Below are positions 5,490 to 64,000 of a stretch of 64,000 nucleotides of DNA, one piece after another. The position numbers were made by a program, and so were the translations under genes. How positions within the stretch are numbered: position 1 is the first letter of the stretch; the number at the start of each line of letters is the position of its first letter. Source of the stretch: Porphyra umbilicalis (lineage: Eukaryota > Rhodophyta > Bangiophyceae > Bangiales > Bangiaceae); assembly GCA_002049455.2 (NCBI GenBank), contig KV918802.1, positions 1 through 64,000 of the forward strand, read 5' to 3'. The notes under the pieces are model-generated. The model saw nothing but the letters and a program-made list of their open reading frames with translations, ran no database searches and was not told where the DNA came from.

Positions 5490-5522
<33 letters not shown>

Positions 5523-6843
5523 ACAACGCCCACCACCGGCCGACGCGGCCGCGTCGCGGTGGGGGCGGCGGGGCACCGACCCCCCCCCCCACCCCCCACG
5601 CCGGCCGCCGACACGGCCGCCGCCGACGCGCCGTTGCGGGCGGCGTGTCGCGGCGGCGGGGCGCCCCGGGGGGCGGCCGCCCCGCCCGCGCGTCGGGCGG
5701 GGCGGTCGGTCACGCGCGCGTCGGCGGCGGCGGCAGCGCCGCCGCCCCCACCGCTGCCGCCGCAAGCTCCCGGCCGCACCGGCGGGGCGGCCGCCGCCGC
5801 CGCCGCCGCCGCGCGCCGCCGCCCGACCGCGCGGGCGGGGGGTGCGCGCGCGCGGCGGGCGGCGCGCGCGCGCCGCCCGCCCGCGCGCGCGGGGCGCGCT
5901 CCCGCCGCCACGGCGGCGGGCGCGGCGGCGCGGGGCCCCCGCCGACGGCGCCGCGCCGACGCTGTCGCGGCGCGCGGGCGCCCCGCCGCCGGCGCGGCGG
6001 TCGGCGCGGTCCCCCCGCCGCGCGGCCGCGGGGCGCGGCGGCGGGGGCCCCCGCGCGGCGCCCAGCTGGCGCCTGCAGGCGCCCCGGCGTCGGCGATTGG
6101 TCGCGCTGCGCGCGGGGGGGGGGGGGGGTGGCGGTGGCGAAATCCGCGCCGTGCACGGCGTGGCGCTGTGGCCCCGCGCGTGGGGGCCCCCCCGGGGGGG
6201 CCCGGAGCGGAACTCTGGCGGGGGGCAACAAGGTCGGTGTGTGTTGGGTGTGGGCACCCTGCTGTACAGTATGGGTGTGGATGCCGCGGGGGCGGGTGCC
6301 CCCAGCGGCCTGCCCCCCCGCCCACCTGTTTCGAGCGCATTGCTGGCCGTCGCTACGGTGTGGTGCCGTTGCGGGCCGCGGGCGGCGCACCCGCCCCGCG
6401 CCACCGCGGCGCAGGCCCCAAGAGTGGGCGCTGCGCGCACACGCCCGGGCGCTGGGAGCCGCCTTCCCCCCCCACGGCGAGCCACCGACCGACCCCCGCG
6501 CGTGCTGTCAACGTCCGCGCCCGTCGAGCACGCCGCCCCTCTTCCCCGGCCACGCCGCACCCGCCGCGGGCCGCCCCCCGGCGCAGCCCGTGGGGTTGCG
6601 CTCCACCCCGCGCGCGCCGCCACACGTCGTGTCTGGCGTGCCGCCGCCTCTGCCGTGCGTGCCGCAGGTAGACCCGCCGCAACGCGCCGGCCGCCGCCGC
6701 CGTTGCGCGCCGGCGCGCGCGGTGGCCGCCGCCACAGGACGCGCCGGCGCCGTTGCCCGCCGGTGCCGCCCCGTCTGCCATCGAGGCAGCAGGAAGGCGG
6801 GGACGCCTCGAGGCAGGCGGGCGGTGGTAGCGGCGGCCGCACG
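3280..6843. other. extreme-GC low-complexity region without a recognisable gene
   Basis: The stretch is dominated by C and G runs (for example near 3391-3413 and 6112-6127), CG-rich arginine/alanine/proline frames open in most registers, and short A runs (4365-4374, 4485-4498). Frames exceeding 800 codons exist but show only composition-driven sequence. A short perfect inverted repeat, CCAGGGGTGG/CCACCCCTGG, spans about 3818-3843. Confidence 0.6.
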
Positions 6844-20436: not shown

Positions 20437-22424
20437 CCCCCCCACCCTCCACGCACTCGCGTGCACCGCATCCCCCCCCCCCGGGGCGGGCCTCCTCGCC
20501 GCCGCCGCCGACACGGTCGCGCACGCGGCCGGGCGGGCGGTGGTCGCCTTCCCGCCCGCCGCCGCGGCGGCCGGCTGGCGCCACGCCAAGGCGCTCGTCG
20601 GCGTGGCGCCCCGCCGCGTGACGGGGCTGGCCGTCCTCCCCGGGGGGGGGGCCCTCGCCGCCGCCGACGCGGGCGGGCAGGTGCGGGTGTGGCGGCGGCG
20701 GCGGCGGCCGGCGGCGGCGGCGGCGGCCGCCGCCGCGCCCGGCGGGGCTGCGCCCCCCGCCCCCCCCGCCGCCGATTGGGTGGCCGTCGACGTCTTTGAC
20801 GCGGCGCCGCCGCCGCCGCCGGGCGCGGAGCAGCCGCTGCTCCTCGCCGCCGACGGCGGGCGGCTGGCCGTTGCGTCGGCGGCCGGCGTGCGCGTCTGGA
20901 CGCGCGTTACGGATGCGGCGGCGGCGGCGGCGGCCACCGGCGGCGGCGGCGGCGCCGCCACCCCCACCGCCAATGGAAATGGAAATGGCGGCGGCGGCGG
21001 CGGCGACGGCGGCGGCGGCGGCGGCAACGGCAACGACGACGACGGTGGCGGGCGCTGGGTCGGCGGCGCGTCGGCGCCGCTGCCGCCCGGCCTCCTCCCC
21101 AAGGCCGTGGCGCTCGCCGCTGCGCCCGGCCTCGTCGCCCTCGGCGGCACGTGCGGCTCCCTGTACGTTGCGTCGGTGGGGGTGGCGGCAGCCGCCGCCG
21201 ACGGCGGGCCGGGCGGTCGCCCCCGCCGCCGCGCCGCCGCCGTCGACGTGGGCGCCTGGGCGGTCCTCCCAGCCGCCCACACGGGGTGGGTGCACGCCCT
21301 CGCGTGGACGACGGTGGGTGGCGCCGGCGGCGGCGCGGGCGTGGCGCTCGCAAGCGGCGGCGGCGGCGACGCGGCCGTGCGCTTGTGGGCGTTTACGCCG
21401 ACCGCCGCCGCCGGCAGCGGCGGCGGCGACGGCGACGGTGGCGGCAGCGGCGGTGCCGCCGCCGCCGCCGACGATGGGTGGGGCAGCGACGGCGAGGGCG
21501 CCCTGTGGGCGGCGCCGACGGTGGGGGTCCCCCCCCCCCCGCCCCCCCCACCCACACGGGTCGCCTCGGCGGGGCGGTGCACGTGCATGGCGCGCCCGTG
21601 GCGTCGCTCGCGTGGTCCCCGGCGGGGGAGCTCCTCTCCGCCTCGGCCGACGGCACGGTCGGCACGTGGGCGGTCGGGCGGGCGGGGGGGCTGTGCCCGA
21701 CCGGCCGCGCCGGCACGCTCGGCGGCGCCCCCCTGACGGGGGGGGTGTGGGACGGCGCGGGCGGCGTCGTCGCCGCGCGGCGGGGGGGGGGGCTCGCCGC
21801 GTGGACGCGCCCGCCGCCCGCGGGCGCCGACGGCAGCGTCTGCGCCGACGGCGGCGGCGACGGCGACGGCGACGGTGACGGCGGCGACGGCGACGGCGGT
21901 GGGGGGGGTGGCGGGCGCGGCGTGTGGGCGGGCGTGCCGATTACGGGTGGCCACGTCGGCGCCGTTGCGGGGGTGGCGTGGGCGGGCGCCGCCGCCCTCG
22001 TGTCGGCGGGCGTCGACAAGACGACGCGCCTGTGGGTGCCCGTCGGCGGCGCGCCCGGGGCGGGCGGGTGGGCGGAAGCGTGGCGCCCGCAGGTGCACGG
22101 GCACCCGCTGGCGGGGGTGGCGTACGTGGCGCCACCCGGGGGCGGGGGGGGCCCGGGGGGGGTCCTCATCTCGGCCGCCGAGGAAAAGGTGGTGCGGCTG
22201 TTTGGGGCGCCGCCCGCGTGGGCAGAGGAGGGGGGGGGGGGGGGGGGGGTCCACGTCCCCCAACTCGGCCTCTCCAACCGCGCCGTCGGCGACGCGTGGG
22301 CGGGGGGGGGGGGGGGGCGCCGCGGCCACGGGCGGCCGCGGGTGCGGCGGGGGGGGCGTGACGGGGGTGGCGGCGGCGGGGGCGGCGGCAACGACGACGA
22401 CGACGACGACGGGGGTGGCGACGA

Positions 22425-22463
<39 letters not shown>

Positions 22464-23620
22464 GGCGGGGCGGGCGGCGCTCCCGCCGGCGCCCGGCGGC
22501 ACCGTTGCCGGCGGCGGCGGGGCGGGCGCCCCCCCGCCCCCCCCCCCCCCCCGCCCGCGGCGCTGCCGCTCGAGCCGCACCTCGACCGGCACCGCCTGTG
22601 GCCCGAAATCGTCAAGCTCTACGGCCACGGCAACGCGCTCGCGACCGTTGCGGCGGTGGCGGGCGCCGCCGCCCCCCGCCCCCCCCCCCCCCCGACGGCA
22701 CGGGCGGCACCCCCCCGCCCCCCCCGCCCCCGCCCCGCCCACCCTCCTCATCGCGTCGGCGGCGCACGCGTCGTCGGCCGCCGACGCGGCCATCCACCTG
22801 TGGGCCGCCCCCGCCGGCGGCGGCAGCGGCGGCAGCGGCAGCAGTGGCGGCGACGCGGCCGTGCCCCCCCCCTTTGTGCGGTTGATGCCGCCCCACGGGC
22901 TGACGGTCACGTCCTTGACGTTTGCGCCCGGCGGCGGGGCGCTGCTGTCCACCTCCCGCGACCGCACTTGGGCCGTCTACGCGCCGGCGGCGGGGGCGGC
23001 GGGGGCGGGCGGGTGGGCGCGCCGCGCGACAGCGCCGGCGGCGCACACGCGTGCCGTGACGGCGGGGGGGTGGGTGGTGGCCCCGCCACCCGCCGGGGGG
23101 GGGGGTGGGTCCTCACGGGCGGCCGCGACCGCGCCGTGCGCTTGTGGGCGGTGCCGGGCGCGGCGGGTGCGGCGGGTGCGGGTGCGGCGGGTGCGGGTGC
23201 GGCGGCGGTGGCGGCGGCGGCGGCGGCGGTGGTCGACGGGGGGGGTGGTGCGGGGGGGGGGGGGGGGGGGGGGCGCCCGTCACCGCCCCCGCGGCGGCGC
23301 TCAAACTGCCCACCCCCATCACGGCCGTGGCCGTGCGCGCCGTTGCGGGGGTGGCGGCCGTCGGCACGGACGGCGGGGGGTTGTACCTGCTGCGCGCGTG
23401 GACGGGGGGGGGGTGGGGGGGGGCGGGGGGGGGGGGGGGGGGGGCCGCGCCTAACGGCCCTCGCCGCGTGGCCGGCGTGGCACGGCGGCCGCGTCGGGTG
23501 CGTCGCGTGGGGCGGCCCCGCCGGCCGCTGGTTGGCGTCGGGGGGGGGGAGGATGGGTGCGTGCGCGTCGTCGCCGTGGGGGCCGTGGGGGGGGACGCCG
23601 ACGCGCCGTCTGGGGGGTGA
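20437..23620 (+). CDS. ELP2: Elongator complex subunit 2 (WD40 protein), frame broken at homopolymers
   Basis: ELP2 is the WD40 scaffold of Elongator, which makes wobble-uridine modifications in tRNA. Recognisable pieces in order are: N-terminal WD repeats (GLAVLPGGGALAAADAGG), HTGWVHALAWT near 21285, VHGAPVASLAWSPAGELLS near 21590, GVDKTTRLWVPV near 22010, RPQVHGHPLAG near 22090, VPQLGLSNRAV near 22255, the family signature LWPEIVKLYGHGNA near 22590, HGLTVTSLTFAP near 22900, SRDRTWAVY near 22960, and terminal WD repeats to 23620. The frame must change at C/G runs near 21530, 22240-22310, 22540, 22680, 23100, 23260 and 23430. Sequencing error in homopolymers is likelier than decay, because the protein between runs is well conserved. 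The start is unresolved because of poly-C tracts at 20308-20435. Confidence 0.82.
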
Positions 23621-25132
23621 GGGGGGGGGGTGAGGGGGGGGGGGGGGGCGGGGGTTGGAGGCGCCGCGTCTGGGGTCGCGCGCGTGCCGCCGCCGCTGCC
23701 GCCGGCTTTGGCGGCGGTGCGCCACGACGGGGGCGGCGGCGGCGACGGCGGGGCGCGGCGCACGCCGCGCGCGCGTGTCGCGGGGCGGGGCCGCGTCCGC
23801 CGCCGGTGCGCGGGCGCCCGCCCGGCGGCGCGCGCGACGCGCCGTCGGTGCGGCAACGGCGGCCGTGGCAAACGAGCGTGGCCCGTGTTTCCCTCGGTCC
23901 CGCCCACCACCCCCGAGACGCGCGGGTGCACGGGGTAATACGGCGCGACAGGCGCGACTGGCGCTGCGGCGCTACACGCTCCCCACGCCCAGCAAACGCA
24001 CCAATCATTGGGTTACCCGTCGCCGGCGCGGCGGCGGGGCGCGTGGCCGGCGGCGGGGGCGCCCCCGCTGGGTCGTCCGCGCCGCCGGCCAGGCGCGGCG
24101 CGTCGGCCCCGACGGCGACGCGGTGGACGTTGACGCGGGGTCGGGGCCGAGGAGGGCGCCTGGTCGGGCTGAGTCGACCGCCGACGGCGGCGGCGGCGGA
24201 CCCCGCGAACCGTGCCCTTTGCCGTTGCGCCGGGGGGGCTGTCACCACCGTTGTGGGCCGCGACGCGACGCGCCCGCCGGGCGGCACCCGCTGTCTGGCC
24301 AACACAAGCGTGCACCTTGGTTTTTATTGATCCAACGGCAAACGCAACACGCGCGCGGGTGTGGGCAGGTCTTAGTGGAGGGAGTGACGTGGTTTGCGTC
24401 ACACCTCTGTGTACCCTGCCAGGGGGGCCCTTGTTCTTGTAGGCCCCCACGTGGGTCACTCTGGGCGAATGGGAACGAGAGCCGGCCGGAGGGGGCGCCG
24501 CCAACCCCGAGGGGCGGCGGCACCCCGCGGCACGTCCCTAGCAAAATCGCCTGGGGGTGCGGGGGGAGCAGACAAGCGGGGGGAAAGAGCGTGCAAGGCA
24601 CGACGGGGGGACGGGATGGGACGAGGGCGGAGGGAGGGAGGGAACCAACACGCAAGGCACGAGCAAAGGGGAAACAAACAATCACAACAGTGGACACAGC
24701 AGGGAGGAAAGAGAAAAGAGGGACGAGGGGCGCCCGTGGCGCACGCCCAGAGCGGACCTTTACCGAGCCTAGCGGAGAAGGTGCGGCGGAACGGGAGCGC
24801 CGACCAGGGGACAGCACCGTGCGGCAGGGGTTGGTGACAGACGGATGCGGAGCGTGTCGACAGAGTGGCAGCAGCGGTTGAGATCGCAACGGTCAAAGAC
24901 GTGGGGTGCAACACAGCAGTGAGGGTGGCGACGGGGGCTCGGCGGTGCCCGCCACGACGACGGCGGCGACGGCGGGACGGACGGGGGCGATCAAGAGGCA
25001 ACGCGCCAACCAGCGTCGACGGTGGCCGCTCAAATCAAAAACACGCGGTAATCATTCTCAGCGGGTCTGCCCCTCGAGAATGTACTTGCCTCGTACAGTG
25101 GGCGAAAAAAAATTCATCACGAGCAGTCCTAT

Positions 25133-46616: not shown

Positions 46617-47980
46617 CCTGGAGTGGGGTTGCCCGGGGTGCTGTGGGTGACGGTCACGGCCACTGCCCGGCAGAGACCACGTGGGCAGCACCAGAAAGCC
46701 CTTCGCGACTCAGGTTGGATGCATCAGTGGGGACATTCCATCGCCTTTGTATTGGGCTCGTAGAGTCACCCAAATCCGCCGTCTCTATGACTGGGTTCAG
46801 GCGTGGACATGTACACTTCTTCTCATCTTCGTGAGTTCGTGTTCAATAAAGTGCGGAATGTATTGCAAGAGAAAGGGACGCTTGTCCGAAGAACCGCGCC
46901 ACCCGTACGCTGACGCCCTACTCAATGCGGGATCGTTCACCACAGATCGCCCCATCTGATCGCCCCCCCAGGGAGCGATCTTCGGATGACAAACCGCCTC
47001 CCCCCGGCTCTGTGAGGGTCCCGCTGTCGCCGCCGTAGATCTCTTTCGCAGCCATCCACTCGACGACGTCATACGAACTGCGCGACAGCAACCAATGGGG
47101 TGTGCAGAAATGCTGTTAAACAACGGCACGGTTCAGAGCTGTGCAATGTCAGATGTATGCACGTGTTTTGGTTGGTACTTCGTAAGTGTACGTCGGGGAC
47201 CGCGTGATTTTCTGTCGTTCGTTCTCTGTGGGCATTGAAACAGCGCCGCGACAACCGATGGAACGGCTTAGACATGTTGATCGAAATTCACGAGGGGCCA
47301 AGTCTTGCTATGTATCGTACATACCAGTGGTGTGGTTGGTTCTTGAAGTTGTGTAAGTAGTCACGTGAGCTGCTGGCGTCCGTCAACTGTCGGACAAGAA
47401 CTTTCGAAAGCCATGATAACCAATGGGGTTACTGACAGTTGTTAATCATCAAACATGTTGTTATAAGCCTTGGATCGATAATGGATACAGGTGTTTTGAT
47501 TGGTCGTTGTCGTCATGAGAGGGATCGCATGCCCTTCCACACGTTCGTGACTGGCGTACCTTCTTTGAGTGACGCCATGTCATTGGTCTGTGTCATCGTC
47601 AGCACCTCATGTGGCAATGAATTGTTTGCGCGGGATTTTTGTGGCGAGCGAAAACGGCAGAAGCAAGTTTATTAATGCGGTCCATGGGCAGCGTGTCGAG
47701 CCACAAGATCTTGCGAAGGTTGCACGCGCAATCATCTCGCGGCCCTTCGCACGAAAGCCACCCCACCGCAGGCCGCCCTGCTCACGCTGCTGCTACCCGC
47801 AATCCTGCCCCGCCCGCGCTCCCGAGCCGCCACCACCAGCAATCTCTGTAGCCTGGTCGCCTGGAGCCGCTGCGCCGTCGCGGCGCGGGCGCTGCGTACC
47901 CTCGCGCCGCCGCACGTGCGCTTGCCGCAAGCTGGACTCCGCAAGCGCAGTGGGCGGCGTCGCCGGCGGCCAACGGCGCC

Positions 47981-48310
47981 ATGTGCGGCGAAGACGACGG
48001 CAGCAGCTACGGCGGCGGCTGCGGCGGCGGCTACGACGGCGGCAGCAGCAACGGCGGCGGGGGCGGCGGCGGCGGCGGCGGCGGGGGCGGCGGTAAGGGC
48101 GGCGTCGGCGGTGGCGAGGGCGGCGGCGGCGGCGGCGGCGAAAGCGGCGGCGGCGGAGGCGTCGGCGGTGGCGGGAAGGGCGGCGGCGGCGGCGTTGGCC
48201 GTGGCGGTGGTGGCGGCGGTGGCGGCGGGGGCAGCATCGGCGGCGGCGGCGGCGGCGGTGGCGGCGGGGGCAGCGGCGGCGGCGGCGGCGGTGAGGGCGA
48301 CAGTGGAGGC
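47981..48310. repeat. long imperfect (GGC)n tract
   Basis: More than 300 bp of GGC/GGT/GGG triplets with occasional AGC and GTC; likely unstable and structure-forming. Confidence 0.85.
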
Positions 48311-48374
48311 CCGCTGCCGCTGCCTGCCACCTCCGTGCCAACCTTCTCGGTGACCGCCGCGGTGCAGCCGTCGC

Positions 48375-51001: not shown

Positions 51002-51720
51002 TGTGGCATATTCCATTTTAGAATTCGGATCTTGAGGGTGACGTTGTCGAGTGTGCTCTTAGGAGACTCGTCGACAACAATAATTTATCAGTCGATCGAC
51101 GTTTCCAGCTGGCAGAGGCCACTCATATTCATATTCCAGGACATTCAGCTGTCTGTCGGCAGACAGATAAGACAGGCAAGCAAATGAGCACAATAAAAAA
51201 TAAATAATGCGGATGTAGCCCCCCCAAGAGCATGCCACAGGCCCATTCGCACAGTACGTGGGCTTTAGCCAGTCAGAGGGGCTACCGGTGGCAATTTGCC
51301 AACTGTGGGTGAAGATATGCTGCGTACCTTCAACGCGAGATTCTTACAATCCCGGTGAGATCCCAGGATAATAACACCTGATCGGGCGGTCGCGGACTCT
51401 TACGTGCCCGCGCGGGCGTAACCGCCCGGGCAGCGAGAGTCGTGTAGGGGCGCCGATCCGTCCCGATCGGGGGATGGTGGCGGTTCTCCGGCGTCGGCAG
51501 CGACCGTCCGACCACGCACGCGCGTGCGTGTGTGGCGAGCAGCTCGCGCTGCGGGTCGGATCGACGCTTACGCGACAGGATGCCCGCGCAGGCGGTTCCA
51601 CGCGTGCGCGTGCGTGGGTGCGGGTGCGGGTTAAGACCCGTGGTCGCGGCGGCTCGTCTAGCAGCACCTGCTGGGGTCACTATCGTCGGTGCCGTGTGGC
51701 GCCATCTTCGCCGGGGTTTT
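51002..51720 (-). mobile_element. older chromovirus copy, left part (3' LTR remnant and adjoining internal DNA)
   Basis: 51148-51324 aligns with the distal part of the younger element's LTR, and 51325-51720 aligns with the internal DNA right after it (52117-52526). The LTR probably begins at TGTGGCATATTCC (51002), which shares only its first bases with the younger LTR. The copy continues at 61981 on the other side of the nested insertion. Confidence 0.75.
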
Positions 51721-52116
51721 TGTGGTAGTATTCACGTTGGTGCAATTACCAGAGTACTGAGACCGAACGTAGCCAAGCAATAAAGAGAGTTCTATCGCCG
51801 TCGCGGCGAGGAAGAAAGACCGTTTGTCGAAGGGCATCCGATGAGGAGCCGGGTGGTGCCCACGACGGCGACCTCGGGCCCACGGTGATTTAATACAAAC
51901 AAGGGCACCGGTCGATCGACCGTCCGATCACGAGCGATCGTAATGAGTGCCGGCAGACAGATAAGACAGGCAAGCAAACAAACAATAAAAAATGAACAAT
52001 GCGAAAGTAACCCCCCAAAGGGCGTGCCACAGGCCAATTCCCACAACACATGGGCTTTGGCCCGTCAAGGAGGCTACTTGTGGCCAATTGCCAATTGGGA
52101 GCAGAGATATGCGACA
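51721..52116 (-). repeat. chromovirus 3' LTR (396 bp)
   Basis: Same length as the 5' LTR, with matching termini TGTGGTA and GACA/TACA. Confidence 0.93.
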
Positions 52117-52199
52117 TACCTCCAACGCGAGATTCGAACCGTCCCGGTGCGATCCAAGGATTGTGAAACCCGATTGGGCGATCGTGGCCTTTTACGAGC

Positions 52200-52225
52200 C
52201 CGCCTGGGCGGAACCGCCCAGGCGG
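52200..52225. repeat. 12-bp-stem hairpin conserved in both chromovirus copies
   Basis: CCGCCTGGGCGG-AA-CCGCCCAGGCGG here; the older copy keeps a GC-rich hairpin with changed arm sequence at about 51402-51430. The position is just inside the 3' LTR in element orientation. Confidence 0.6.
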
Positions 52226-52889
52226 CGGGAGTCGTGGGGGGCGCGACGCCCTGTCCCGATTGGGGGGAGGTGGCGGTTTGACGTCGCCGGTCGCGAACGT
52301 CCGGCCACGCACGCGCGTGCGTGTATTGCGGGCAGCGTGCGCTGCCGGTCAGATCCACGCTTACGCGCACGCGCGCCCGCGCAGGCGGGTTGGCGTCGGC
52401 GTCGGGGCCAGGCGGCCGGGCGCCAGGTGACGATCGGCGGGGTTAAGACCCGTCGGTGTGTGGGGGCGTCGTGCAGCACGTGCTGGGGTGATCGTTGTCG
52501 GTGCCGAGTGGCGCCTACTTCGTCGGGGTTTGACTACCCCGGCGACAAGGCGAAAGCCTGGACGCGGAGCCGTGTTGTAGAGAGTGGGGGGAAGGGGTTT
52601 GTACACTGGGACCGGTTACCACCGTGTCATGTGCGTGGGGCAGCGCGGGCTGGGTGGCCAGCGTCGTTGCCGGGTGGCGCCCACCTCGTCGGGGGTTGAC
52701 TACCCCGGCAACGAGGCGAGAGCCGGGACGCGGGTCCGTATTTGTCGGCACGGGGCCATCCTGTGTCTTCGTGCTCACGCACAGGTCAAGGCCTTGCGGC
52801 AAAGCTTTAGTGGGGGTGCGCTACCGCGAGGTGGCAAACCGAGAGGTTGCGGAACCGGTGAGTGTGGGTTTGCGTTGGGGGGGGGGGCG

Positions 52890-53035
52890 ACGCGCAAGGC
52901 GGCAAGCCCGGCGACGGCGGCAAGAAGGGCGGGAAGCCCGGCGACGGCGGCAAGGGCTGCAAGCCCGGCGACGGCGGCAAGGGCGGCAAGCCCGGCAACG
53001 GCGGCAAGGGCAGCAAGCCCGGCGACGCGGGTGGT
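52890..53035 (+). repeat. collagen-like Gly-Lys-Pro minisatellite of the antisense region
   Basis: About five units of roughly 27-30 bp encode GGKPGDGGKG on plus (frame 52862-53179). The older copy has a diverged counterpart at about 62320-62540. It may belong to a leader ORF before the antisense gene, or be non-coding. Confidence 0.6.
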
Positions 53036-53150
53036 TGGCTTTACGGCGCGTGCGGGTCGCCTGGCGGCGCGGCGGTAACTGCCGGCGGCGCGGGCGATTG
53101 GCCTTGCGGCGACGTATGGGAGGAGGAAGGGTTCGCACCCAAGCACCAGC

Positions 53151-53840
53151 ATGGCCGACCAGGCCGCGATGGCGGTTGACGGCGGCCACGCCAATGGCGA
53201 GGCGCCCGTGCCCCACGCCGCGGGGGGGGCCGAACGCGATGTGCAGCGGTCCACCGACCCGGAGGTGCTTCGACAGTTCCGGCCCAGTGGCATGTTCTGT
53301 GCCCACGTGGGCCCAACTGAGGTGGTGGACGGGGTCCCGATCATCGCTGACCACGGTCTTCATGAGATTTTCATTGGCAACCGCGCTCGCGCGCACACTC
53401 GGCGTCTTCACGGGCGCTACGAGGCCCTGCCGGGCTTTGTGGAAGTGTTGGCCGAGCACGGCTCACCTACCCATGCGGGTGACCGCGTGGCCGAAGTCCA
53501 TGGTGAACCGTTATTTGGGAACTAGGGTCTGCATCGCCGTATATACGAGGTCATGTCGTTTTGCAACGAAGTCATCCGGTACCAGGTGCCCTTGCACCCC
53601 TGCCACCGTTTGGTATACACCAACGCCTTGTTTTTTCCCGTGCGGGGTACCAAGACGTTCGAGGCGGCAGCCAACTCGGTTTGCCGCCTGTTGCGGAACT
53701 GGCCTATTGCCGTCTTTCTCTCGCGCCCGGTGGCCACGGACCTCGCGGTACCGATCGGCCACGATGCCGGGTTGCCGGAGTACTTGGATCAGCTTAAGCT
53801 GGTGGCGGCGGAGGAGAACGATGCGGTCGATGAAGATTGA
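53151..53840 (+). pseudogene. antisense ORF A of the chromovirus, one in-frame TAG
   Basis: ATG 53151 (MADQAAMAVDGGHANGE) starts a 230-codon frame interrupted only by TAG at 53523-53525, where the older copy has CAG. The downstream half (IYEVMSFCNEV, HRLVYTNALFFPVRGT, RLLRNWPIAVFL, DLAVPIGHDAG) is the best conserved between copies. It lies on the strand opposite to gag-pol, between pol and the 3' LTR. No family is recognised; the fold could be capsid-like or regulatory, but nothing shows it. Stop TGA is at 53838-53840. Confidence 0.7.
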
Positions 53841-53849
53841 AGCCCTCGC

Positions 53850-55103
53850 ATGAGCCGGCTACCGAACCCCTTTCGGGTGCCGATGTTCGCGACTGATCAT
53901 CGCCGCGCGGCGGACACCCGGTTCTTCCGCGGTCGCCGGCTGCTGCCGACGGAGTGGTCAGCCGGCTTCCTTCGGGCGCCGAAGTCGTTTGACTTGTCTC
54001 GTTGGCTTCCGCCAGTCCCTGACTGGGAGCTACAGACCGATCTGTGGGTTGCGACCCCGGTGGTGGTATCGTACCTGGCGGACTCGTTGCGAAACGATTA
54101 TAGCTCCGAATGGCAGATTGTGTACTTGGAGTACTACTACAATCTGATTGCGGCTTGGGTAAGCACCCTTCAAGAGGACAAGGTCTTTGTCCGCTTGGAC
54201 GAGAAGACACTTCGTCACTTCGACGTTTTGGACACCTCCAAACTGCGTGAGGCGCCTTACGGCGAGGTGGCACATGCCTTATATGGAAAGATGCGCCGCG
54301 CAATGGACGTTTTTCCTCGTGGGGTCGTCTTCAAGGACGTGGTCCGTCGGAGCCGGGACACCGGCGAGGCGCGGCAAGTGCGCGTGCCGGTCGACGAGAC
54401 CAAGGAGTTCGGTTTTGGCCTTAGACACGCGTGTGTGAATTTCGACTGGGCACCTGACCCGACCGCGCACGCCCATGTGGCGCCGGTTCCTGCGAGTCAC
54501 CTCGGGGTGTGGCGTCGCGGTCGACAGACCCATCCGGGAGGGGCTTATGCCGTCAGTGGCGACCGTGGGGGCTATCACCGCCCGCGTTCGCCACGTCGCG
54601 ATCGCTCGCGGTCGGCGTCGCCGCCCCGGGCCATCGAGGCCACTTGGCCGACGCGTGCCTCTTCCCCCGCGGCGGTTTCCTTGTTTGGGTCGGCGCGCGT
54701 GCGCGACGTGCGCCTTCGCGCGCCCCGTGGGGCGACTATGTCAGCGGTGGCGCACGCCTGGGTGGACCAAGTGACTGGCTTGCGCCGTGCTGGGGAGCAG
54801 GCGGACGGCCGAGGGTTCGAGTCGGCCTTGGCCATCATTGGGCAGGCCGTGGCTCGCGCCGTCGATGGCGATGCCAACTACGAGCACTTTGTTCAGCATC
54901 TTGAGGTTATCCAGCCGGAGGAGGTGGCGGCACCGACGCGCTTTAACGCGCAGAGCGTTCTGGGGCGTCGCGCTCATGCTGACGGGGGGCCGTCCGTCGG
55001 GGCTCCGCCCTCGGCGCGTAATACGCGTGCGCGTAGTGTGTCTCAGGAGTCGGGGGCGACTTGTCGTCGCGACTCGCGTGGTGGTGATGAGGAGGAGGAG
55101 TAG
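53850..55103 (+). CDS. antisense ORF B of the chromovirus, 417 residues, intact
   Basis: It begins 9 nt after ORF A ends and in the same frame, so the two may be one protein or be translated in succession. The N-terminal 200 residues look globular (FDLSRWLPPVPDWELQTDLW, LEYYYNLIAAWVSTLQEDK, VPVDETKEFGFGLRHACVNFDW). A Ser/Arg-rich stretch (PRRDRSRSASPPRA) like a nuclear or RNA-binding linker and a helical C-terminal part ending in acidic residues (GGDEEEE) follow. No stop or frameshift is present, unlike gag-pol in the same element. Unknown function; not recognised as gag, envelope or transposase. Confidence 0.65.
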   Translation: MSRLPNPFRVPMFATDHRRAADTRFFRGRRLLPTEWSAGFLRAPKSFDLSRWLPPVPDWELQTDLWVATPVVVSYLADSLRNDYSSEWQIVYLEYYYNLIAAWVSTLQEDKVFVRLDEKTLRHFDVLDTSKLREAPYGEVAHALYGKMRRAMDVFPRGVVFKDVVRRSRDTGEARQVRVPVDETKEFGFGLRHACVNFDWAPDPTAHAHVAPVPASHLGVWRRGRQTHPGGAYAVSGDRGGYHRPRSPRRDRSRSASPPRAIEATWPTRASSPAAVSLFGSARVRDVRLRAPRGATMSAVAHAWVDQVTGLRRAGEQADGRGFESALAIIGQAVARAVDGDANYEHFVQHLEVIQPEEVAAPTRFNAQSVLGRRAHADGGPSVGAPPSARNTRARSVSQESGATCRRDSRGGDEEEE

Positions 55104-55287
55104 CGAGGTTCACTGTTCAGTGACTTGCCCGTTTGACCCTGGCGGGGAGGGGGTGCCAATGTCGGGGGCTTACGCCTTTAAGGTGTTGATGTTTCTTCGT
55201 CTTGTGATTGTTTGTGGTTCGACATGTTTTTATCCACTTCTCAGTTTTTCTGTTTATCGTCATAGCGATGAAGGAAGAGGCAGGCCA

Positions 55288-58200
55288 TCATGGCCCATGT
55301 TGTGCGATTTGTATCCCTTGCATCTGCTGATAAAAGCACTTCGTACTCGAAACATGCGCGTATGGCGGTAGCGTACCAACTGGTGTGGTCCATTGTGGTA
55401 TGACCACGGTTGCTTCCGCTGTGGTTGTCACCAAGCGTCGAAGGACTGAGTACGAGTGTTGTACCGGGGGAACCAGAAAACCATTGGGGAGCACTGGTAC
55501 AGAGGGATCGTTCCCAATCAGTGTCGCCTGCGCGGATTTCGGCCACATATATGTGTACGGGCCGTGAACACGGTTCAGCCGATGGAAATGACACAAGGCA
55601 AGTTGGGGATCATACGCAAAGTTGCGCGTAATGGACGACAGAGTGGACTTAAGCCACGCGACAAGAAGTACTTCATTAATTGCGGCGGCAGTACTTGAAC
55701 CTGTCCACGAGACATCGGCATGGATCACTCCGTCCCCGATAACATGGACAAGTTGGATGGTGGATATCCACGTGGAGTTCATGACAATGTTGGTCACGGT
55801 TGTGAGCCCGGCCTGTCGCTGACTTCGTCGTGTTGGCGTTTGCCATTCGTACCCGGTTACATGCTTCTTCTTCTGCCGGAGAAATCGCTCAAACAGGTTG
55901 CGTGAGAGATTCTCCAGGGGTTCCCAGGTGTCGTCTTTCGACCCGCAGTCGAACCAGCGCACTTTAGCGCTGTAGCGGTCGCCAGTCTGGCGTCAGTCTG
56001 GATGTTTGTCAACCACATACTCATCGGCAGTTGCCGGGGGTGGCTTGCGTTTGTCAAGCCCATCTAGCAGGGGGTGTGGAGCCGTGTCCGTCGTCGTTGG
56101 ACGAGGAGCTGGGGTGACATGGTCACTGCTGACTCGTTTTTCATCGCAGTCAACGTCAATGACGAAAGTAGAGGCATCCGTATCCGCGTCAATGACCACG
56201 ATGGGTTCAATGGCTTTGCTTTGCAGCTTGTTTTGCCGATCGTGGTTGGTCGCGTATACGAAGTCGCCGATCTTGACGTTCGCATTGCGGGTTGCGACCG
56301 GATGGTCGAAGTTACGGTTGTGACGTTGTTGCGTCTTACGCAAGGCCTCGATTACGATGGGGATCTGCTTGCGCAGGCGGGCTATGAACTCGCGTTTGCG
56401 AGCTAGGGGTGACCCATCCTTGAGCGTTTCCTTATTGGTAAGCGGGGTGCCTAGGTGCGAGTTGCGAACCGTGAGGTTGGGGATCCGCATTGGGATATCG
56501 AGTTCAAATGGAGTTATACCCGTAGACCGGTGTGGTTGGCCATTCTATGCCATGGTGATTACCGGGAGTAGCTCGTCTCATCGTTATGGGTCGTCGGCGA
56601 CGTAGTGTCTCAGCTGAGTAGCCATGGTACGGTTGTACCGTTCAACGTGCCTATTGGTTTGGGGACGATACGCCGTGGTGCGAACCGTTTCAATGCCAAG
56701 CATTTTCATCACAGCGATGAAGAAGTTCGACATGAACTGGGGCCGTTGGTCCGATAGGATCCGATCCGGGGGGGCGTAGGCGGACACCCACGCGTCGATG
56801 ATGGCTGACGCCACGGACATGGCCGTACTTCGCCGTAAAGCGACGCACTTGGTGAGCTTGGCGAAGCGGTCGGTGATAACCAATATGAAGCGATCGCCCT
56901 TTTTGGAGGCCGGGATGGGCCCAAATATGTCAACGGACAGCTCCGTGAGAGGCTCAGTAGCCGGGAACAGCGTCAAGGGCGTGGTGTGTCCCAGCAAGGC
57001 GAGGCGGTTTTGGGCACAAGTTGTGCACTTGGTGATGGTGGTGTGAATGTCCTTTACCATCGAAGGCCAGAAATATGTCTTTCGCATGGTGTAGTACATC
57101 TGGTTCGTACCGGGGTGGGCTGCCACTATGGCGTGGTGCTCGAGCGTCAAGACGCGTTCGCGTCATGATTTTGGTATATCCAATTGGTTGCCGTAAGGCG
57201 TCCGGCGATACAGAGCGTGATGCTCGTTGCGGAAGAAGGCCTTGGCCGCTCCGCGCTCCACGCGAGTGGACATCTCGACACAAGTGTCGCCTGTTTGTTG
57301 TGCTTCGACAACATCGTCGAACTCCACCGGTTCTGGTGTGTCGGTACCCGTGTACCTCCCCGTTCTTAAGCCTTTGGCCGTCTCGGCCAATACAAGGCAA
57401 GTTATATCATCATGGATATCTTCTGGCGGCGCCACCGTAGAGGCGCGCGACAGGAAGTCCGGCAAGTGGTGCGATGCACCTGGTTTATACACCCTATCGA
57501 AAGTGTATTCGGAGAGGCGAAGTCGCCATCGCATCAAGCGTCCGCTTGAGTCAATCGTGCTGTAGATTCAGCTAACTGCTTGGTGATCGGTTCGGATGAG
57601 AAATCGTTGCCCACCGAGGAAGTGCCTCGGCTTGAGGACAGCCCATACGACGCCGAGGCATTCGCGCTCCATTGTGGAGTAGTTTTGCTCTGCAGCAGTG
57701 AGTCCTGTGCTCCAAAATCCGACAGGATGAAGCAGTTCGCCCGGTTCCTCCTGGAGGAGTGTAAAACCAATTTGGTCGGCGTATGCGTCAACGTCGACGA
57801 CAAACTTCCGGTTGGCCTTTGACAAGGCAAGTACCGGTTGGCACAATAGTGCGTTCCAAAGGTCTTCAAATGCGGCTACTGCCACGTCCATCGGTGGTGT
57901 TAGGTCTGGTGGGATCTCGGCCCCAGTCAGGGCGTTCAGGGGCTTCGCTCGTTTAGTGAAGTCCTTGATATAACGTCGATAGACGTTGCACATGCACAAA
58001 AAGCTTCTCAGCTGGATCTTCGTCATTGAGATCTTGGCGTGCTTCAGAGCATCCACGTTCTTGTTGTGCACGTGCAGTTGGCCGGGGCGGAAAATATGTC
58101 CGAGGTACTCGACTTAGTCGGAGAACCATATGCACTTTTCCAAGTTCAGGGTAACCCCGGCTTCGCGGAGGCGGTGCAGAACCATTCCAACGTCCTTGAC

Positions 58201-59713
58201 GTGTTGTACCGCGTTCGCGGAAAGGATGATGACATGGTCTCAGTAGAAGAGGCATATCTGCCACTTCAAGCCCAAGAGGATAATGCCCAAGGCACGCTGG
58301 AAGGTATCTGGCGTGTTCGACAAGCCGAAAGGCATTGGTAACCAGTGGTAAACACCACACTGCGTTGTGAACGCCGTCTTCTCTTGGTCTTCCTTGCGTA
58401 ACGGCACTTGCCAGTACCCCGCGGTGCAGTCGATAGACGAGAACAACTGGGCATCTCCCTAGGAGTCAAGGCAGTCCTCCATTTGAGGCAAGGGATAAGG
58501 ATCCTTCTTGGTGATGTTGTTTAACCGACGATAGTCGACACAGAGTCGGGCTTTGCCATTCTTCTTTGGTTCAATTACCACGGGGCTTGCCCAAGCACTA
58601 TGGCCATGGGCAATGACGTTGAGCTTCAACATCTTGTTAATCTGATCAGCGATGATCTGCCGTTTGAACGGCTCTGACCGGTAGGGTTGGGCCCGTATGG
58701 GCAGAGCGTCTGGTGGCGGAACGATGGCGTGCTGCGTAGCACGGATGACACCTAGGACTCCATCCCAAATCGACGAATGCGTCTTGAGCATGTCTCGAAT
58801 CTGCTTGTGCAGATACTCGGAAGCCTCACTGAGGTCGAGGTCCTGGAGTGGGTCACGACTGGCGTTGTCTGATGAAGTATCGGTTTCAACTTTTGGAGTG
58901 TTGTCATTCAAGACGGCGGCCAACATAGGCCCTTGCTGAGGTTCCGCAAACCCCACATTGAGTTCTTGCGAAAAATGACTTGGTCTTTGCCAAAGTTGAA
59001 TAACTTGACTAAGAAGGATTCGTCGGGCTTGACGATGGCTAGGCCGCGGGCGACCGCCATTGACTTATGTCGGCATAACCGAGCGTTCGGTGTGATGGTA
59101 ACCATACCAGGGGTGTCGCATGTGGCCATCATCCACTCCTCTTGTTGTCCGTCGGCATGTACCTGTTTACAGGCTCGCACCCTTGCGGGTTTGCCTTGCC
59201 AATGACGGTCCGAGGCACTGTCATTAACACAATCCAAGATCGGCGTTGGCCGAGGAAGCTCCTCCGTGCAGCGCACGTGTTCCTGCCAGACGATCTTACG
59301 CAAAAGCGGCAAGATCGCCTCGATGTTGTGATCAATGAACTCGGTCCCAAGGATGCACGGGACTGACAAGTTGTCGAAAACGAGGAATTGGTCAAATAGA
59401 CGAACACCCCCGGTGTCTACATACAGATATATGGCATACTTCGTCACGAGAAGATTGTTGTTTGCATCTTGAATGCGCGGAAGCGTGGTCAACTCCTCGG
59501 CGCAAGCCATCCAGTTCGCAGGGAGAACACTAGTTCGAACTATGTTCACCCCGGCGCTCGTGTCAAGTGCAGGGCGGTAGCTCCACCTCACACACATGCA
59601 CGGGCCAAGAGTGGCGGCGATCTCGTAGTGCCGTAAGGCACGGCGCAACAACCTTGTTATCGTACGCTTTCGCGTTCCGCCGGGCAACCCCAAGTCGGGC
59701 ACCTGGCCTGGGC
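55288..59713 (-). pseudogene. chromovirus pol (protease, RT, RNase H, integrase, chromodomain), degraded
   Basis: It enters from the frameshift site. Protease motif ALDTSAG is at about 59560. A one-base loss near 58950 moves the frame; from there a single frame runs to 55288 with TAG/TGA/TAA stops near 58459, 58240, 58113, 57568, 57163, 56584, 56578, 56533 and 55993. RT: SPVVIEPKKNGKARLCVDYRRL near 58550, and the YxDD site reads Y-stop-D-H (about 58237), so the enzyme is dead. RNase H: VDVDAYADQIG near 57800. Integrase: HHCC (HHAIVAAHPG ... CTTCAQN) and D,D,E (LSVDIFG, ILSDQRP, HVERYNR). Chromodomain: KVRWFDCGSKDDTWEPLENL near 55960. About 185 further codons follow it. Confidence 0.9.
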
Positions 59714-61354
59714 GTTTTTTGAGTCGTACACGGCGTCGGCCGGATGTTCGATCTCGTCTTCTTCGACGTTACCGTCGGCAAGGGCATGAACGCCGATAGG
59801 CGGTTGGCGACGCTCGCAAGGGCGATATGGTTCGGAACACTGTGCGGCAAAGTGCCCCGGCTTGTTACAATTGTAACAGATGTCAGCCCGATTTGCTTGC
59901 GGGACGGCGGCCCGAGGGGACGGCGGGGTGTGAACCGGTGTGAACGGTCGCTCCGTCGTCGTCCGCCGGTCCTGTGTCGCGTAACCGACTATGATTGCCG
60001 TTGAGCGGGTCATCTTGAGCTGCAAGCGCAGCTTGTTGGTGCCGTCCCAGTACATCTGGGCGGTAGCAACCGTCTCTGGTAGAGTTCAATCCGGGAATCG
60101 GCCATTCAGGACCCGTACATGCGCTTGAACAAGGTCCGAAAGACCCGTGATGAAGACGTCCTTAACGTCTTGAATGTTGATTAAACCGTTCAGAACATTG
60201 CATTGCGATTCCACGCGGGTACCAAAGGCCGTGGGCGCCTCGTTGTCTTGTTGCTTCAGCGTAATGATGTCTTGGTGGGCGTTAGCCATAGTTGCGTGTG
60301 TCGCGTTCTTCAAGAAAAGCCAGTTGAAGGCATCTCCGTATGTACAGATGGCATAACGCTTACGTCCGAGAGTGCTGTTGAGCGCGCCGAAGAAGGCCAT
60401 CTTGGCATTGCCGGCTATTCGAAAAACCATGAGTGGAAGTGCTTGACCGTGTGTCAGCCCAGCCGCGACGCACGCGGGGCGAAGTGTCGTTAAGAACATG
60501 AAGATGCCCGAGGGCAGGGCTCCCGTGAATGGCTGTTGCCCATGGAACGCTCCGCCTAAAAGTTTCTTGAGACGATGCGACCGTTGTGCCTCTCTAGGCG
60601 TAAACGTCAGTTGGCGGCGGATCAGGAAGTTCGTCCTGTAGTCCAGGAGTGTCTTGAAGCGGATATTTGCCGGGCGGATCACCTTGATCCTATCGGCTTT
60701 TTCGAGTCGCTCCTTCCGTTTGGTGGGGGTCGCGGGGTGCTTGCGCGCGGCCGCGTCCGACTCGCTCGAGCTGTCGCTCGGTGAGATCCCACTTGGGGGC
60801 GAAAACGGGCCTCGAGGCCCGTGGCCATCGTCCGAAGAGGACGTGTCCGTCGCGTTGGGGTTGTCGTCGTCTCACGACGTCGGGCTTGACCCAGAGGCGG
60901 AATCATCGGCAGATGAGGAAGTCGCGGCGTTAGCCGGATGGTCCTTGCGCACGGACTTGTCTTTAGTCACCTTGCTTGTCTTCTTGACATTCTTGGTCTT
61001 GTCGCCCAACTTGCGGCAAGACTTAGCCACACGGCGCTCCTCCTCGTGGGAGTCGACCTTGCGCAGGGCCTCGACGTCGTCGACCAACTTGTCATTGGCT
61101 CGCGCCAGAGACTCGTTAGTCTGTTGTTGGGCCGTCAGGCGTCGTTGAAGTGCGTCAACGGCCGCCCTCAGGCTCTCGACCACCTGCATCTGCCCGGAGG
61201 CGGCTTGATCCGAAGGGATGAGAGGAGTTGGAGCACCGTCCATTGGGGCGTCGGAGGCGGCCGGGGTGCCTTGTCCCTCGCCCGGCGGCCGGTAGCCAGC
61301 TGGCAAATTGCCGTCTCTGGCTCGCCGAGTGCCGCCGGTACCACCAGTAGACAT
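59657..61354 (-). pseudogene. chromovirus gag with CCHC zinc knuckle, two nonsense codons
   Basis: ATG 61354 starts a 565-codon frame broken only by TGA at 60872-60874 and at 60086-60088; translation of the same frame continues coherently past both. A coiled-coil stretch (VESLRAAVDALQRRL, ANDKLVDDVEAL) is near the N-terminus, then a Ser/Asp-rich acidic section, a capsid-like helical domain (GDAFNWLFLKNATHA, FITGLSDLVQAHV) and a nucleocapsid zinc knuckle CYNCNKPGHFAAQC near 59880. It ends 57 nt past the slippery site. Confidence 0.85.
59714..59720 (-). promoter_or_regulatory. -1 ribosomal frameshift slippery heptamer A AAA AAC
   Basis: On minus the gag codons read TCA AAA AAC, giving X XXY YYZ in the correct phase. 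A one-base slip back opens the pol frame (R-P-G-Q-V-P-D-L), which is open here and overlaps gag to 59657. Confidence 0.85.
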
Positions 61355-61565
61355 ACTGGGACCTGAACAAAGTGTTCCGACTTGGCTAACGCCCTGCGCG
61401 CCAACGTCAAAGATCTCAACCGTGATGCCCCCGGCACCACGCCTACAAGTCGATGGCTTACGCCCCGCGCGCCAAGCGACCGTATCGACACCGTCACAAT
61501 GCCACGAGGCAGCGAGAAGGTTCTCGGGAACACCGTGCCGCGAGGCACGATGAAGGCGAGGGTAT

Positions 61566-61582
61566 CCCCTGCCGCTCCACCA
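61566..61582 (-). promoter_or_regulatory. chromovirus tRNA primer-binding site
   Basis: Two bases inside the 5' LTR the minus strand reads TGGTGGAGCGGCAGGGG, the complement of a tRNA 3' end CCCCTGCCGCTCCACCA. The exact tRNA was not identified. Confidence 0.85.
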
Positions 61583-61584
61583 AA

Positions 61585-61980
61585 TGTGGTATTAATAACG
61601 TTGGTGCAATTACCAGAGTACTGAGACCGACCGTAGCCAAGCAATAAAGCGAGTTCTATCGCCGTCGCGGCAAGGAAGAAAGACCGTTTGTCGAAGGGCA
61701 TCCGATGGGGAGCCGGGTGGTGCCCACGACGGCGACTCCGGACCCACGATGATTTAATACGAGCGAGGGCACCGGTCGATCTACCGTCCGATCACGAGCG
61801 ATCGTAATGAGTGGCGGCAGGCAGATAAGACCGGCAAGCAAACGAACAATAAAGAATAAACAATGCGGAAGTAACCCCCCAAACGGCGTGCCACAGGCCA
61901 ATTCCCACAACACATAGGCTTTGGCCCGTCAAGGAGGCTACTTGTGGCCAATTGCCAATTGGGAGCAGAGACATGCTACA
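61585..61980 (-). repeat. chromovirus 5' LTR (396 bp)
   Basis: Drives the minus-strand gag-pol and pairs with 51721-52116. AATAAA-like sequence is present on plus (61642, 61848). Confidence 0.93.
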
Positions 61981-62550
61981 GTTTTGCGAACCAGGCGATA
62001 AGACGAAATCCGTCCCGCGGATCCATGGTGGCGAAAAGGTGCATACCCCGTGGCCTGTTCACACCGTGCCTTGCGCGGGAGTGTGGATTCTCGGCACCGG
62101 GCCCCCCTGTGTCTTCGTGCTCGCGCATAGGTTGAGGCCTAACGGCAATGCTTGAGTCGGGGCGCGCCACCGTAAGGTAGGAAACCGCAAGGTTAGGTGG
62201 AGCTTCGGCGAGCGTGGGGGGGGTGACCAGGGGGAGGGGCGTGCCCTGCGGCGGCGACGGCAGCACTGCTGGTGCTGCGGGCAGCACACCCGGCGGCTAC
62301 ACGTGAGGGCGGCAAACCCGGCAGGGCCGGCGGCGCGGACGACAAGCCCGGCGCCGCCGGCGGAAAGCCCGGCGGCTAAGCGCGGTGGCGGCAAGGGCGG
62401 TAAGGCCGGCGGCAAGCGTGGCAAGAACAAGCGGCAAGCGCGGCGACTACGCACAAGGGTAGCAAGAGCGGCAATGCCGGTGGCGCGGGCCGTTTGCCAG
62501 GCGGCGCCGGCAACAAGCCCGGCGGCTACGTGCGGAGGCGGCAAGGGTTA

Positions 62551-63323: not shown

Positions 63324-64000
63324 ATGATCGATCCCGCCGCGGTGGCGGTGGACGGCGGCAATGCAAACGGCGAGGCGCACGTGGCTGACGCCGTTGCGGG
63401 CGAAGGACACGATGTAGACCTGTCCATTGACCCGGACATGTCGCGCCAGGTTCTGTCTAGCGGCCTCTACTACGTGCACGTTGGCCCGATCGACCTGGCC
63501 GATGGGATCCCGGTCATTGCCAACCAGAGTCTGTACGACGTCTGCGTCCGCAACCGCGCTTGTGCGCACACTCTGCCCATTCACGCGCGGTATGGGGCCC
63601 TTCCGCGATTTTTCGCCGTGTTGGCCGAGCTTGGGACGCCCAGCCATGCTGGTGACCGCGTGGCCGAAGTCCATGGGGACGCGTTCTTCGGGAACCAGGG
63701 GCCGCCGCGCCGTATCTACGAGGTCATGTCGTTTGGCAACGAGATGGCTCGCTAGAAAGCGCCTTTGCACCCGTTACACCGTTTGGTCTACACCAACGCT
63801 CTGTTGTTCCCCGTGCGGGGGACGGAGACCTTCGAGGCGGCGGCCAACTCGTTTGACCGCTTGTTGAGGAACTGGCCGAACGCCGTCTTCCTCGGGCGCT
63901 CGGTGGCCACGGACCTCGCGGTACCGATCTTTCACGACGCCGGTCTGGCAAAGCACCTTGATCAGCTTACGCTGGTGGCGGCGAAGGAGAACGACGTGGT
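63324..64000 (+). pseudogene. antisense ORF A in the older chromovirus copy, one TAG, cut by window
   Basis: ATG 63324 (MIDPAAVAVDGGNANGEA) starts the homologue of 53151-53840. A TAG at 63753-63755 stands where the younger copy has TAC; the younger copy's own stop position is CAG here. Protein similarity is above half over the first 125 residues and higher in the second half, with the same length and no indels between conserved motifs. Confidence 0.75.

What the first reader, a model, noticed from the sequence alone, without database searches (positions are those of the whole stretch)
52526..55103. Chromovirus family that carries conserved genes on the strand opposite to gag-pol
The LTRs, GTTTT duplication and PBS define one element, 51721-61980. 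Between its pol gene and 3' LTR lie two plus-strand ORFs (53151-53840 and an intact 417-codon 53850-55103), antisense to gag-pol. The older copy has the same antisense ORF A at the same place (63324 onward), with the protein conserved while the DNA has diverged, and each copy has a different single stop. A few plant gypsy elements (for example Grande) are known to carry an antisense gene in this position; these proteins match no family I know. ORF B stayed open while gag-pol in the same copy gained about eleven stops.
Basis: partly seen in the sequence, partly recalled or inferred. Interest (0 to 1): 0.9.

Follow-up and report, generated by a model that had tools for sequence, protein, structure and literature searches.

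The report
Algal retrotransposon with conserved antisense gene
A large family of jumping elements in what appears to be a nori-type red alga carries, besides its usual replication genes, one extra gene on the opposite DNA strand; selection has kept that gene's protein intact, yet one branch of the family lost it and still multiplied, so the gene probably acts at a distance or is optional.

Summary
The element at 51721-61980 is real: 396-bp LTRs 93.4% identical, GTTTT duplication, chromodomain integrase. This copy has two premature stops; 12 of 20 fetched loci, picked as stop-free, encode 652 aa in one frame, and 46 of 68 scored full-length places are stop-free. The protein is constrained: dN/dS 0.21 between subfamilies, against 0.65 or more in 500 neutral shuffles of that pair; frame control. 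The gene lies tail-to-tail with pol, also in two deep lineages (pol 56-57% identical). No Pfam, PHROG, NCBIfam or PDB relative was found; the only named homologue is a Pyropia protein. Antisense genes in this position are known (Grande, RIRE2, Retand, Boty), so the kind is known. The unexpected result: one deletion removed most of the gene, and all 40 places scored share its junction; the last 300 codons of pol are still constrained in six of these copies (dN/dS 0.29). The gene is thus probably not needed in cis. Best reading: a trans-acting, probably nuclear accessory factor; a self-limiting or optional factor is not excluded. Transcription is untested.

The parts
51716..51720 (.). target-site duplication GTTTT, left
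51721..52116 (-). LTR, left (3' LTR in gag-pol orientation), 396 bp
   Evidence: an LTR was found upstream of the antisense gene in 17 of 20 fetched loci
52117..53150 (+). leader between LTR and the antisense gene's ATG; presumed antisense promoter and 5' UTR
   Evidence: promoter function not tested
52886..53027 (+). minisatellite (27-bp units) just upstream of the ATG; a 21-bp version in L010
55244..59348 (-). part of pol (RNase H and chromodomain matched in window pieces; RT, integrase by alignment to L009), degenerate: 9 stops and 2 frame shifts in the aligned 1369 codons
59349..61563 (-). gag and protease region, inferred from position; open pieces 60086-60871 (scanned, no significant Pfam match) and 60872-61591 (not scanned)
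61564..61582 (-). candidate primer-binding site next to the 5' LTR; donor tRNA not identified
61585..61980 (-). LTR, right (5' LTR in gag-pol orientation)
61981..61985 (.). target-site duplication GTTTT, right
51154..51320 (-). LTR fragment of the older copy (80% identical), into whose leader the young element inserted
63324..64000 (+). start of the same antisense gene in the older copy; it runs on outside the window to about position 65311 of contig C42, with the end of pol from 65456

Best explanation
This is a multi-copy Ty3/gypsy chromovirus family of what is probably a bangialean red alga. Its pol-3'LTR region carries one protein gene on the opposite strand (652 aa, tail-to-tail with pol, about 150 bp between the gene ends). 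SHOWN: the element; the single reading frame; selection on the protein; conservation of the arrangement in two deep lineages; a lineage that lost most of the gene and amplified. INFERRED: the gene is read from a promoter in the 1-kb leader inside the 3' LTR. Its product has a conserved N-terminal part, an Arg/Ser/Pro-rich basic linker and a conserved C-terminal part, with no membrane segment. It works in trans, most likely in the nucleus on element RNA or DNA (export, protection, import or transcription), as an accessory factor that helps transposition. Elements without it survive by using the protein made by the many copies that have it. I put the coding gene under selection at about 0.97, not-needed-in-cis at about 0.85, and trans-acting helper in the nucleus at about 0.45.
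For: Single frame with stop-free places: (46 of the 68 scored, out of 488 first-look candidates). dN/dS: 0.20-0.23 between subfamilies for 8 of the 9 copies compared, 0.34 for the ninth, the old nested copy; for L010-L025 0.21 (bootstrap 0.165-0.269) against a shuffle mean of 0.93 and minimum of 0.65; aORF and pol side by side 0.07/0.09, 0.17/0.17 and 0.145/0.25 for three pairs of young copies. Frame control: in three pairs the -1 frame, whose third positions coincide, gives 0.33-0.47 and the other four frames 1.0-2.03. Position: 60 of 131 pol hits have a listed aORF 144-179 bp away, 36 of them at exactly 149; an antisense pol end follows the aORF in 24 of 25 fetched loci; C91 and C260 keep the arrangement with 56-57% identical pol. 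Amplified deletion; last 300 codons of pol at dN/dS 0.29 in six deletion copies against 0.30 in seven aORF-bearing copies. Basic linker and no transmembrane segment. Precedent: Grande's protein in this position is nuclear and has its own promoter (PMC7264820, parts 1-2 of 3 read).
Against: No transcript, protein, localisation or binding data. dN/dS is not uniformly low: within sub1 36 pairs range from 0.21 to 0.66, L010-L017 gives 0.34 against pol 0.195, and L020-L026 0.485 against pol 0.58, as expected if many copies decay after insertion. Both structure models are poor (mean pLDDT 33 and 39), so no fold supports a nucleic-acid role. The basic linker is compositional only: the PDB profile hits to arginine-rich viral core tails have E 0.25 or worse. 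If the product were freely shared in trans, selection on each copy's own gene should be weak, yet it is strong; this needs some cis preference or selection between lineages. The deletion lineage fits an optional or self-limiting gene just as well. In the deletion copies only the last 300 codons of pol were tested, and 2 of the 6 have one stop besides the shared one near the end.
Confidence: 0.48

Rival explanations
1. Self-limiting regulator: the antisense gene product damps transcription or transposition of the family (copy-number control), and the deletion lineage is an escape from it.
For: One shared deletion in 40 scored places while the end of pol stayed under selection; antisense position; antisense retroviral proteins such as HBZ (named in PMC11963269, passages seen; that it is a regulator is recalled).
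Against: A gene that only harms its own element's spread should decay, yet between subfamilies and in three of four young pairs its dN/dS is about as low as pol's, and bearing places are not fewer in the capped lists (109 distinct aORF 3' ends, one place split in two; 40 deletion places scored of 486 candidates).
Confidence: 0.22
2. Optional function under selection at another level: the protein helps under some conditions (a life stage, stress, or host-defence evasion such as silencing suppression), so losing it is tolerated for a time.
For: Similar synonymous spread in both lineages over the last 300 pol codons (0.03-0.11 among six deletion copies, 0.01-0.11 among seven bearing copies).
Against: Nothing points to a particular condition; no homologue of known function.
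Confidence: 0.2
3. The antisense RNA, not the protein, is the functional product (dsRNA or siRNA source, or transcriptional interference).
For: Tail-to-tail transcription could overlap; proposed for other elements in PMC7264820.
Against: Codon-level constraint in this frame, and a frame kept open over the divergence of the subfamilies.
Confidence: 0.05
4. Captured host gene or unrelated inserted element carried as a passenger.
For: The named homologue P0035 is an annotated Pyropia gene model with a weakly glycosyltransferase-61-like tail. 50 of 110 listed aORF entries had no pol in the capped pol list, so their context is not shown; L005 had no antisense pol end in its 4.3 kb.
Against: Same position in three deep lineages; antisense pol end in 24 of 25 fetched loci and LTR in 17 of 20; purifying selection. 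Whether P0035 lies in an element could not be checked.
Confidence: 0.05

Closest known systems
Grande (maize), gene23
   Same: Protein gene antisense to gag-pol between pol and the 3' LTR, present across copies; unknown function (PMC7264820, parts 1-2 of 3 read).
   Different: Grande's product is reported nuclear and transcribed from its own promoter; neither is tested here. Grande is a flowering-plant element, of the Tat lineage by recall. Its protein was not compared directly.
Retand lineage (flowering plants), TRP28 antisense ORFs
   Same: [quoted passage not shown] some recently active elements lack coding domains (PMC11963269, passages seen).
   Different: Retand is described as non-chromovirus and found in Eudicotyledons and Liliopsida only; its antisense proteins carry Transposase_28 (PF04195), which none of the four aligned members of this family matches.
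RIRE2, Wallabi, Gran3 (rice), PvRetro13 (bean)
   Same: Antisense aORF between pol and 3' LTR (PMC7264820).
   Different: Other hosts; not compared directly. PvRetro13's has an SMC domain according to the review, none was matched here.
Boty / BcGypsy1 brtn (Botrytis cinerea)
   Same: Antisense extra gene in a fungal gypsy element (title of Zhao 2011 seen in a reference list); one consensus of the subfamily lacks the beginning of the gene (PMC8365987, passages seen).
   Different: No sequence relation tested directly; fungal host.
HTLV-1 HBZ and other antisense retroviral genes
   Same: Protein coded antisense in a retroelement (as cited in PMC11963269, passages seen).
   Different: Position, size and mechanism differ (recalled); analogy only.

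Membership tests
Ty3/gypsy chromovirus | gag-pol order RT-RNase H-integrase | tested here: met
   (L009 pol: RVT_1, RNase H, H2C2, rve in this order)
Ty3/gypsy chromovirus | chromodomain at the integrase C terminus | tested here: met
   PF00385 at 25.9 and 28.2 bits, cut-off 25.1. For the distant lineage C91 no chromodomain match in the two pieces scanned
Ty3/gypsy chromovirus | LTRs, target-site duplication | tested here: met
Ty3/gypsy chromovirus | tRNA primer-binding site | tested here: inconclusive
   19-base candidate next to the 5' LTR; its encoded 16 bases occur at 3 places in the genome, this element included, and a tRNA gene was not shown
Ty3/gypsy chromovirus | RT phylogeny within the chromovirus clade | not tested
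   no RT tree built
antisense aORF between pol and 3' LTR (aORF-3R) | position and orientation | tested here: met
antisense aORF between pol and 3' LTR (aORF-3R) | present in most copies with protein conservation | tested here: inconclusive
   protein conservation met. Presence: of 131 pol places 60 paired with a listed aORF, 2 more through, 35 with the deletion, 34 undetermined because lists are capped
antisense aORF between pol and 3' LTR (aORF-3R) | antisense transcript from its own promoter (as in Grande) | not testable with these tools
   no RNA data
Retand TRP28 (PF04195) protein | Transposase_28 domain | tested here: not met
   not listed up to E 5 and 10 (HMMER's filters drop most matches above about 0.1)
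env-like protein | transmembrane segment, sense orientation | tested here: not met
   antisense; best 19-residue hydropathy mean 0.98
captured host gene | homologue of known cellular function | tested here: not met
   (unnamed proteins and one Pyropia hypothetical)

The most novel reading that the evidence does not exclude
The antisense protein is a family-wide public good: a trans-acting factor needed for chromovirus transposition in red algae. A lineage that deleted the gene has become a natural cheater, keeping its own selected pol and living on the product of its gene-bearing relatives, while the gene itself moves between element lineages as a cassette. That would give an LTR-retrotransposon antisense gene a defined role in the social life of elements and let its function be tested in nature.
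Probability: 0.3. Interest if true: 0.78.

Novelty: new variant of a known kind. Interest (0 to 1): 0.6.

Why it matters
Antisense genes between pol and the 3' LTR have been described for years without a known function (PMC7264820, PMC11963269). Here the gene sits in a chromovirus of what appears to be a red alga, far from the flowering-plant and fungal cases, in a protein family without recognised relatives in the libraries searched, under selection comparable to pol in most comparisons. One genome holds both many bearing copies and an amplified lineage that lost the gene. That natural contrast asks directly whether such genes act in trans, limit the element, or are optional.

Tried and rejected
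Structure route: two AlphaFold jobs (33-row alignment of the full protein, 27-row alignment of residues 45-427) gave mean pLDDT 33 and 39; I made no fold search, since such models give meaningless matches. PDB profile hits (12 chains, E 0.22 or worse; 11 of them viral core or capsid proteins or constructs of these) align near the Arg/Ser/Pro linker: composition, not homology. PHROGs, NCBIfam and Pfam gave nothing significant. A scan of viral contigs found no relative among 18 pattern matches.

Rejected: two separate genes (one frame); ORF B kept open by selection in this copy (Fisher p = 0.52); env-like gene (no membrane segment); antisense RNA as the sole product (codon-level constraint); chance long ORF of GC-rich DNA (six-frame control).

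Weak spots: the 20 loci were picked from places that one search listed as stop-free, so their open frames are not a sample. In one search the motif search caught 17 of the 20 (not L018, L020, L027), and L019 and L022 showed no start of the expected kind. In one search, L005 (41% identity), L019 and L027 aligned poorly to the reference and I left these three out of the dN/dS set; L002, L007 and L008 were not used because they repeat L025, L018 and L019. In one search the pol alignments of L013, L018, L025 and L027 are unreliable (large insertions or degeneration, dN/dS 0.66-0.85 there) and I did not use them. Pairwise dN/dS values are not independent. Genome searches score only the best candidates, so copy counts are lower bounds and lean to intact copies. 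Cassette exchange between subfamilies is inferred; slower synonymous change in pol could mimic part of it.
Full report
WHAT IS THERE. The window is part of an unnamed 83.8-Mb genome in 665 contigs. The element is bounded by 396-bp LTRs (51721-52116, 61585-61980; 93.4% identical, no gaps) with a GTTTT duplication. Pol ends in a chromodomain (PF00385). A 19-base candidate primer-binding site follows the 5' LTR, but its donor tRNA was not found. The element is inserted in the leader of an older copy of the same family, whose LTR fragment lies at 51154-51320 and whose antisense gene starts at 63324 and runs on beyond the window.

ONE GENE, NOT TWO. Against an intact relative, the window copy has two premature stops (codons 127 and 232) and the older copy two others (146 and 294). 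I fetched 20 loci, all picked from places that one search listed as stop-free. In 12 of the 20 the frame runs unbroken for exactly 652 codons from a shared ATG; three more (L017 with an in-frame insertion, L025, L026) are open at 664-735 codons; L019 and L022 showed no start of the expected kind and L018, L020 and L027 were not caught by the motif search. A genome search with the 652-aa protein scored 68 of 488 candidates, 46 of them without a stop. Upstream of the ATG lies a minisatellite whose reading phase against the gene differs between the copies I compared (L009 and L017), which supports the ATG as the start.

IT IS UNDER PROTEIN SELECTION. Between two subfamilies (window-like sub1, L010-like sub2) dN/dS is 0.20-0.23 in 8 of the 9 copies compared, at dS 0.85-0.92; the old nested copy gives 0.34. 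For L010 against L025: 0.21, bootstrap 0.165-0.269, no stops, against a neutral shuffle mean of 0.93, minimum 0.65 and about ten expected stops. In the same DNA (three pairs) the -1 frame, whose third positions coincide with those of the gene, gives 0.33-0.47, and the other four frames 1.0-2.03. aORF and pol side by side: 0.07 and 0.09, 0.17 and 0.17, 0.145 and 0.25, 0.34 and 0.195 for four sub2 pairs, 0.485 and 0.58 for the sub1 pair L020-L026. Within sub1 the 36 pairs range from 0.21 to 0.66: copies decay after insertion, so the constraint is clearest between subfamilies and among young copies.

IT BELONGS TO THE ELEMENT. An LTR lies about 1 kb upstream of the gene in 17 of 20 loci; L019, L025 and L027 gave no LTR hit. 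An antisense pol end follows the gene in 24 of 25 loci, L005 being the exception; in L019 and L027 only short pieces match. Of 131 places matching the last 300 codons of pol, 60 have a listed aORF in tail-to-tail order 144-179 bp away, 36 of them at exactly 149; 50 of the 110 aORF entries had no pol in that capped list. Two distant relatives keep the plan: C91 (aORF 39% identical to L010, pol 57%) and C260 (aORF 40% identical to C91's, pol 56%); no chromodomain was matched in the two C91 pieces scanned. The last protein search listed 101 proteins, 43-99% identical to C91's, from public assemblies without names. The only named homologue in the three searches is MMPV_008440 of Pyropia vietnamensis (39%). 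The host is therefore inferred, not shown, to be a bangialean red alga.

A NATURAL LOSS THAT SPREAD. Of the 71 unpaired pol places, 35 carry one and the same deletion. In L032 (contig C24) the end of pol is joined to about codon 88 of the aORF; about 1.8 kb is missing against L010, and tandem repeats fill about 0.75 kb of the stretch upstream (436-1190). All 40 scored genome places, of 486 candidates, match across this junction at 95-100%, so one event most likely founded them all. Two more unpaired places pair with aORFs found; 34 are undetermined. The last 300 codons of pol in six deletion copies are still constrained: pooled dN/dS 0.29 with dS 0.03-0.11, against 0.30 in seven aORF-bearing copies; all six share a new stop near the end and two have one more (pairs are not independent). 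The rest of gag-pol was not compared in these copies. The lineage thus multiplied with a selected pol end and without its own aORF, so the gene is probably not needed in cis.

MOSAIC HISTORY. Along L010 against three sub1 copies (400-bp bins), identity is 87-91% at the LTR, 77-85% in the next two leader bins, 72-78% over most of the aORF and mostly 82-95% in pol (55-70% in the last bin of two). The one deletion copy read here has a sub2-like LTR and leader (95%) but an aORF remnant closer to sub1 (81% to L026, 72% to L010, over about 190 bp). The aORF seems to pass between lineages as a cassette, as template switching during reverse transcription would allow. This is inference.

HOW IT MAY WORK. 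The 72.6-kDa product has two conserved parts (about residues 85-425 and 500-590, judged from the alignment) joined by a basic Arg/Ser/Pro linker near 470-487, which recurs in the C91 and Pyropia proteins, and no membrane segment. No family or structure match was found, and the structure models are too poor to use. By analogy with the nuclear product of Grande, I favour a trans-acting nuclear accessory factor acting on element RNA or DNA. A self-limiting regulator and an optional factor remain open. No transcript evidence was available.

AGAINST THE LITERATURE. [quoted passage not shown] PMC11963269 and PMC8365987, passages seen). Retand also has tandem-repeat arrays in this region. Chromoviruses in red algae are on record (abstract of PMC3605345 in the listing). 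In my searches of the open library I saw no listing of an antisense aORF in a red-algal element; most subscription papers, including the survey of extra ORFs in plant gypsy elements (not held), were not available. By recall, that survey reports few extra ORFs in plant chromoviruses and only in 5' regions. Verdict: a new variant of a known kind, with an unusual natural experiment attached.

Noticed in passing
L017:3541-5748 (contig C158): This copy carries an in-frame insertion of about 83 codons early in the antisense gene without breaking the frame; its flanks repeat a few residues, like a small insertion with duplication.
   Followed up: no
L032:436-1557 (contig C24): In the deletion copy, nested tandem repeats (periods 9-281) cover much of the stretch between the aORF remnant and the leader, longer than the arrays of L010 or the window copy.
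   Followed up: partly
P0035 (Pyropia vietnamensis MMPV_008440): Annotated 984-aa gene model: aORF-like up to about residue 595 and a tail with a weak glycosyltransferase-61 match (E 0.026, below cut-off); possibly a model fused across an element.
   Followed up: partly
G000 contig C392, 35311-37266 (+) and 59411-61366 (-): Two aORF copies in opposite orientation, each with a pol end matched only to codon 294 with one TAG, as in a large inverted duplication; contig C63 also holds two copies in opposite orientation.
   Followed up: no
window 47943-48336, 4001-6000 and 22001-24000: GGC-rich repeat arrays (47943-48336) and 2-kb stretches of 84% G+C, outside the element.
   Followed up: no
L010:4952-5839: A second long plus-strand frame (295 aa) overlaps the antisense gene in many sub2 copies; dN/dS of 1.1-2.0 in the other two plus frames suggests it is mechanical.
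   Followed up: partly
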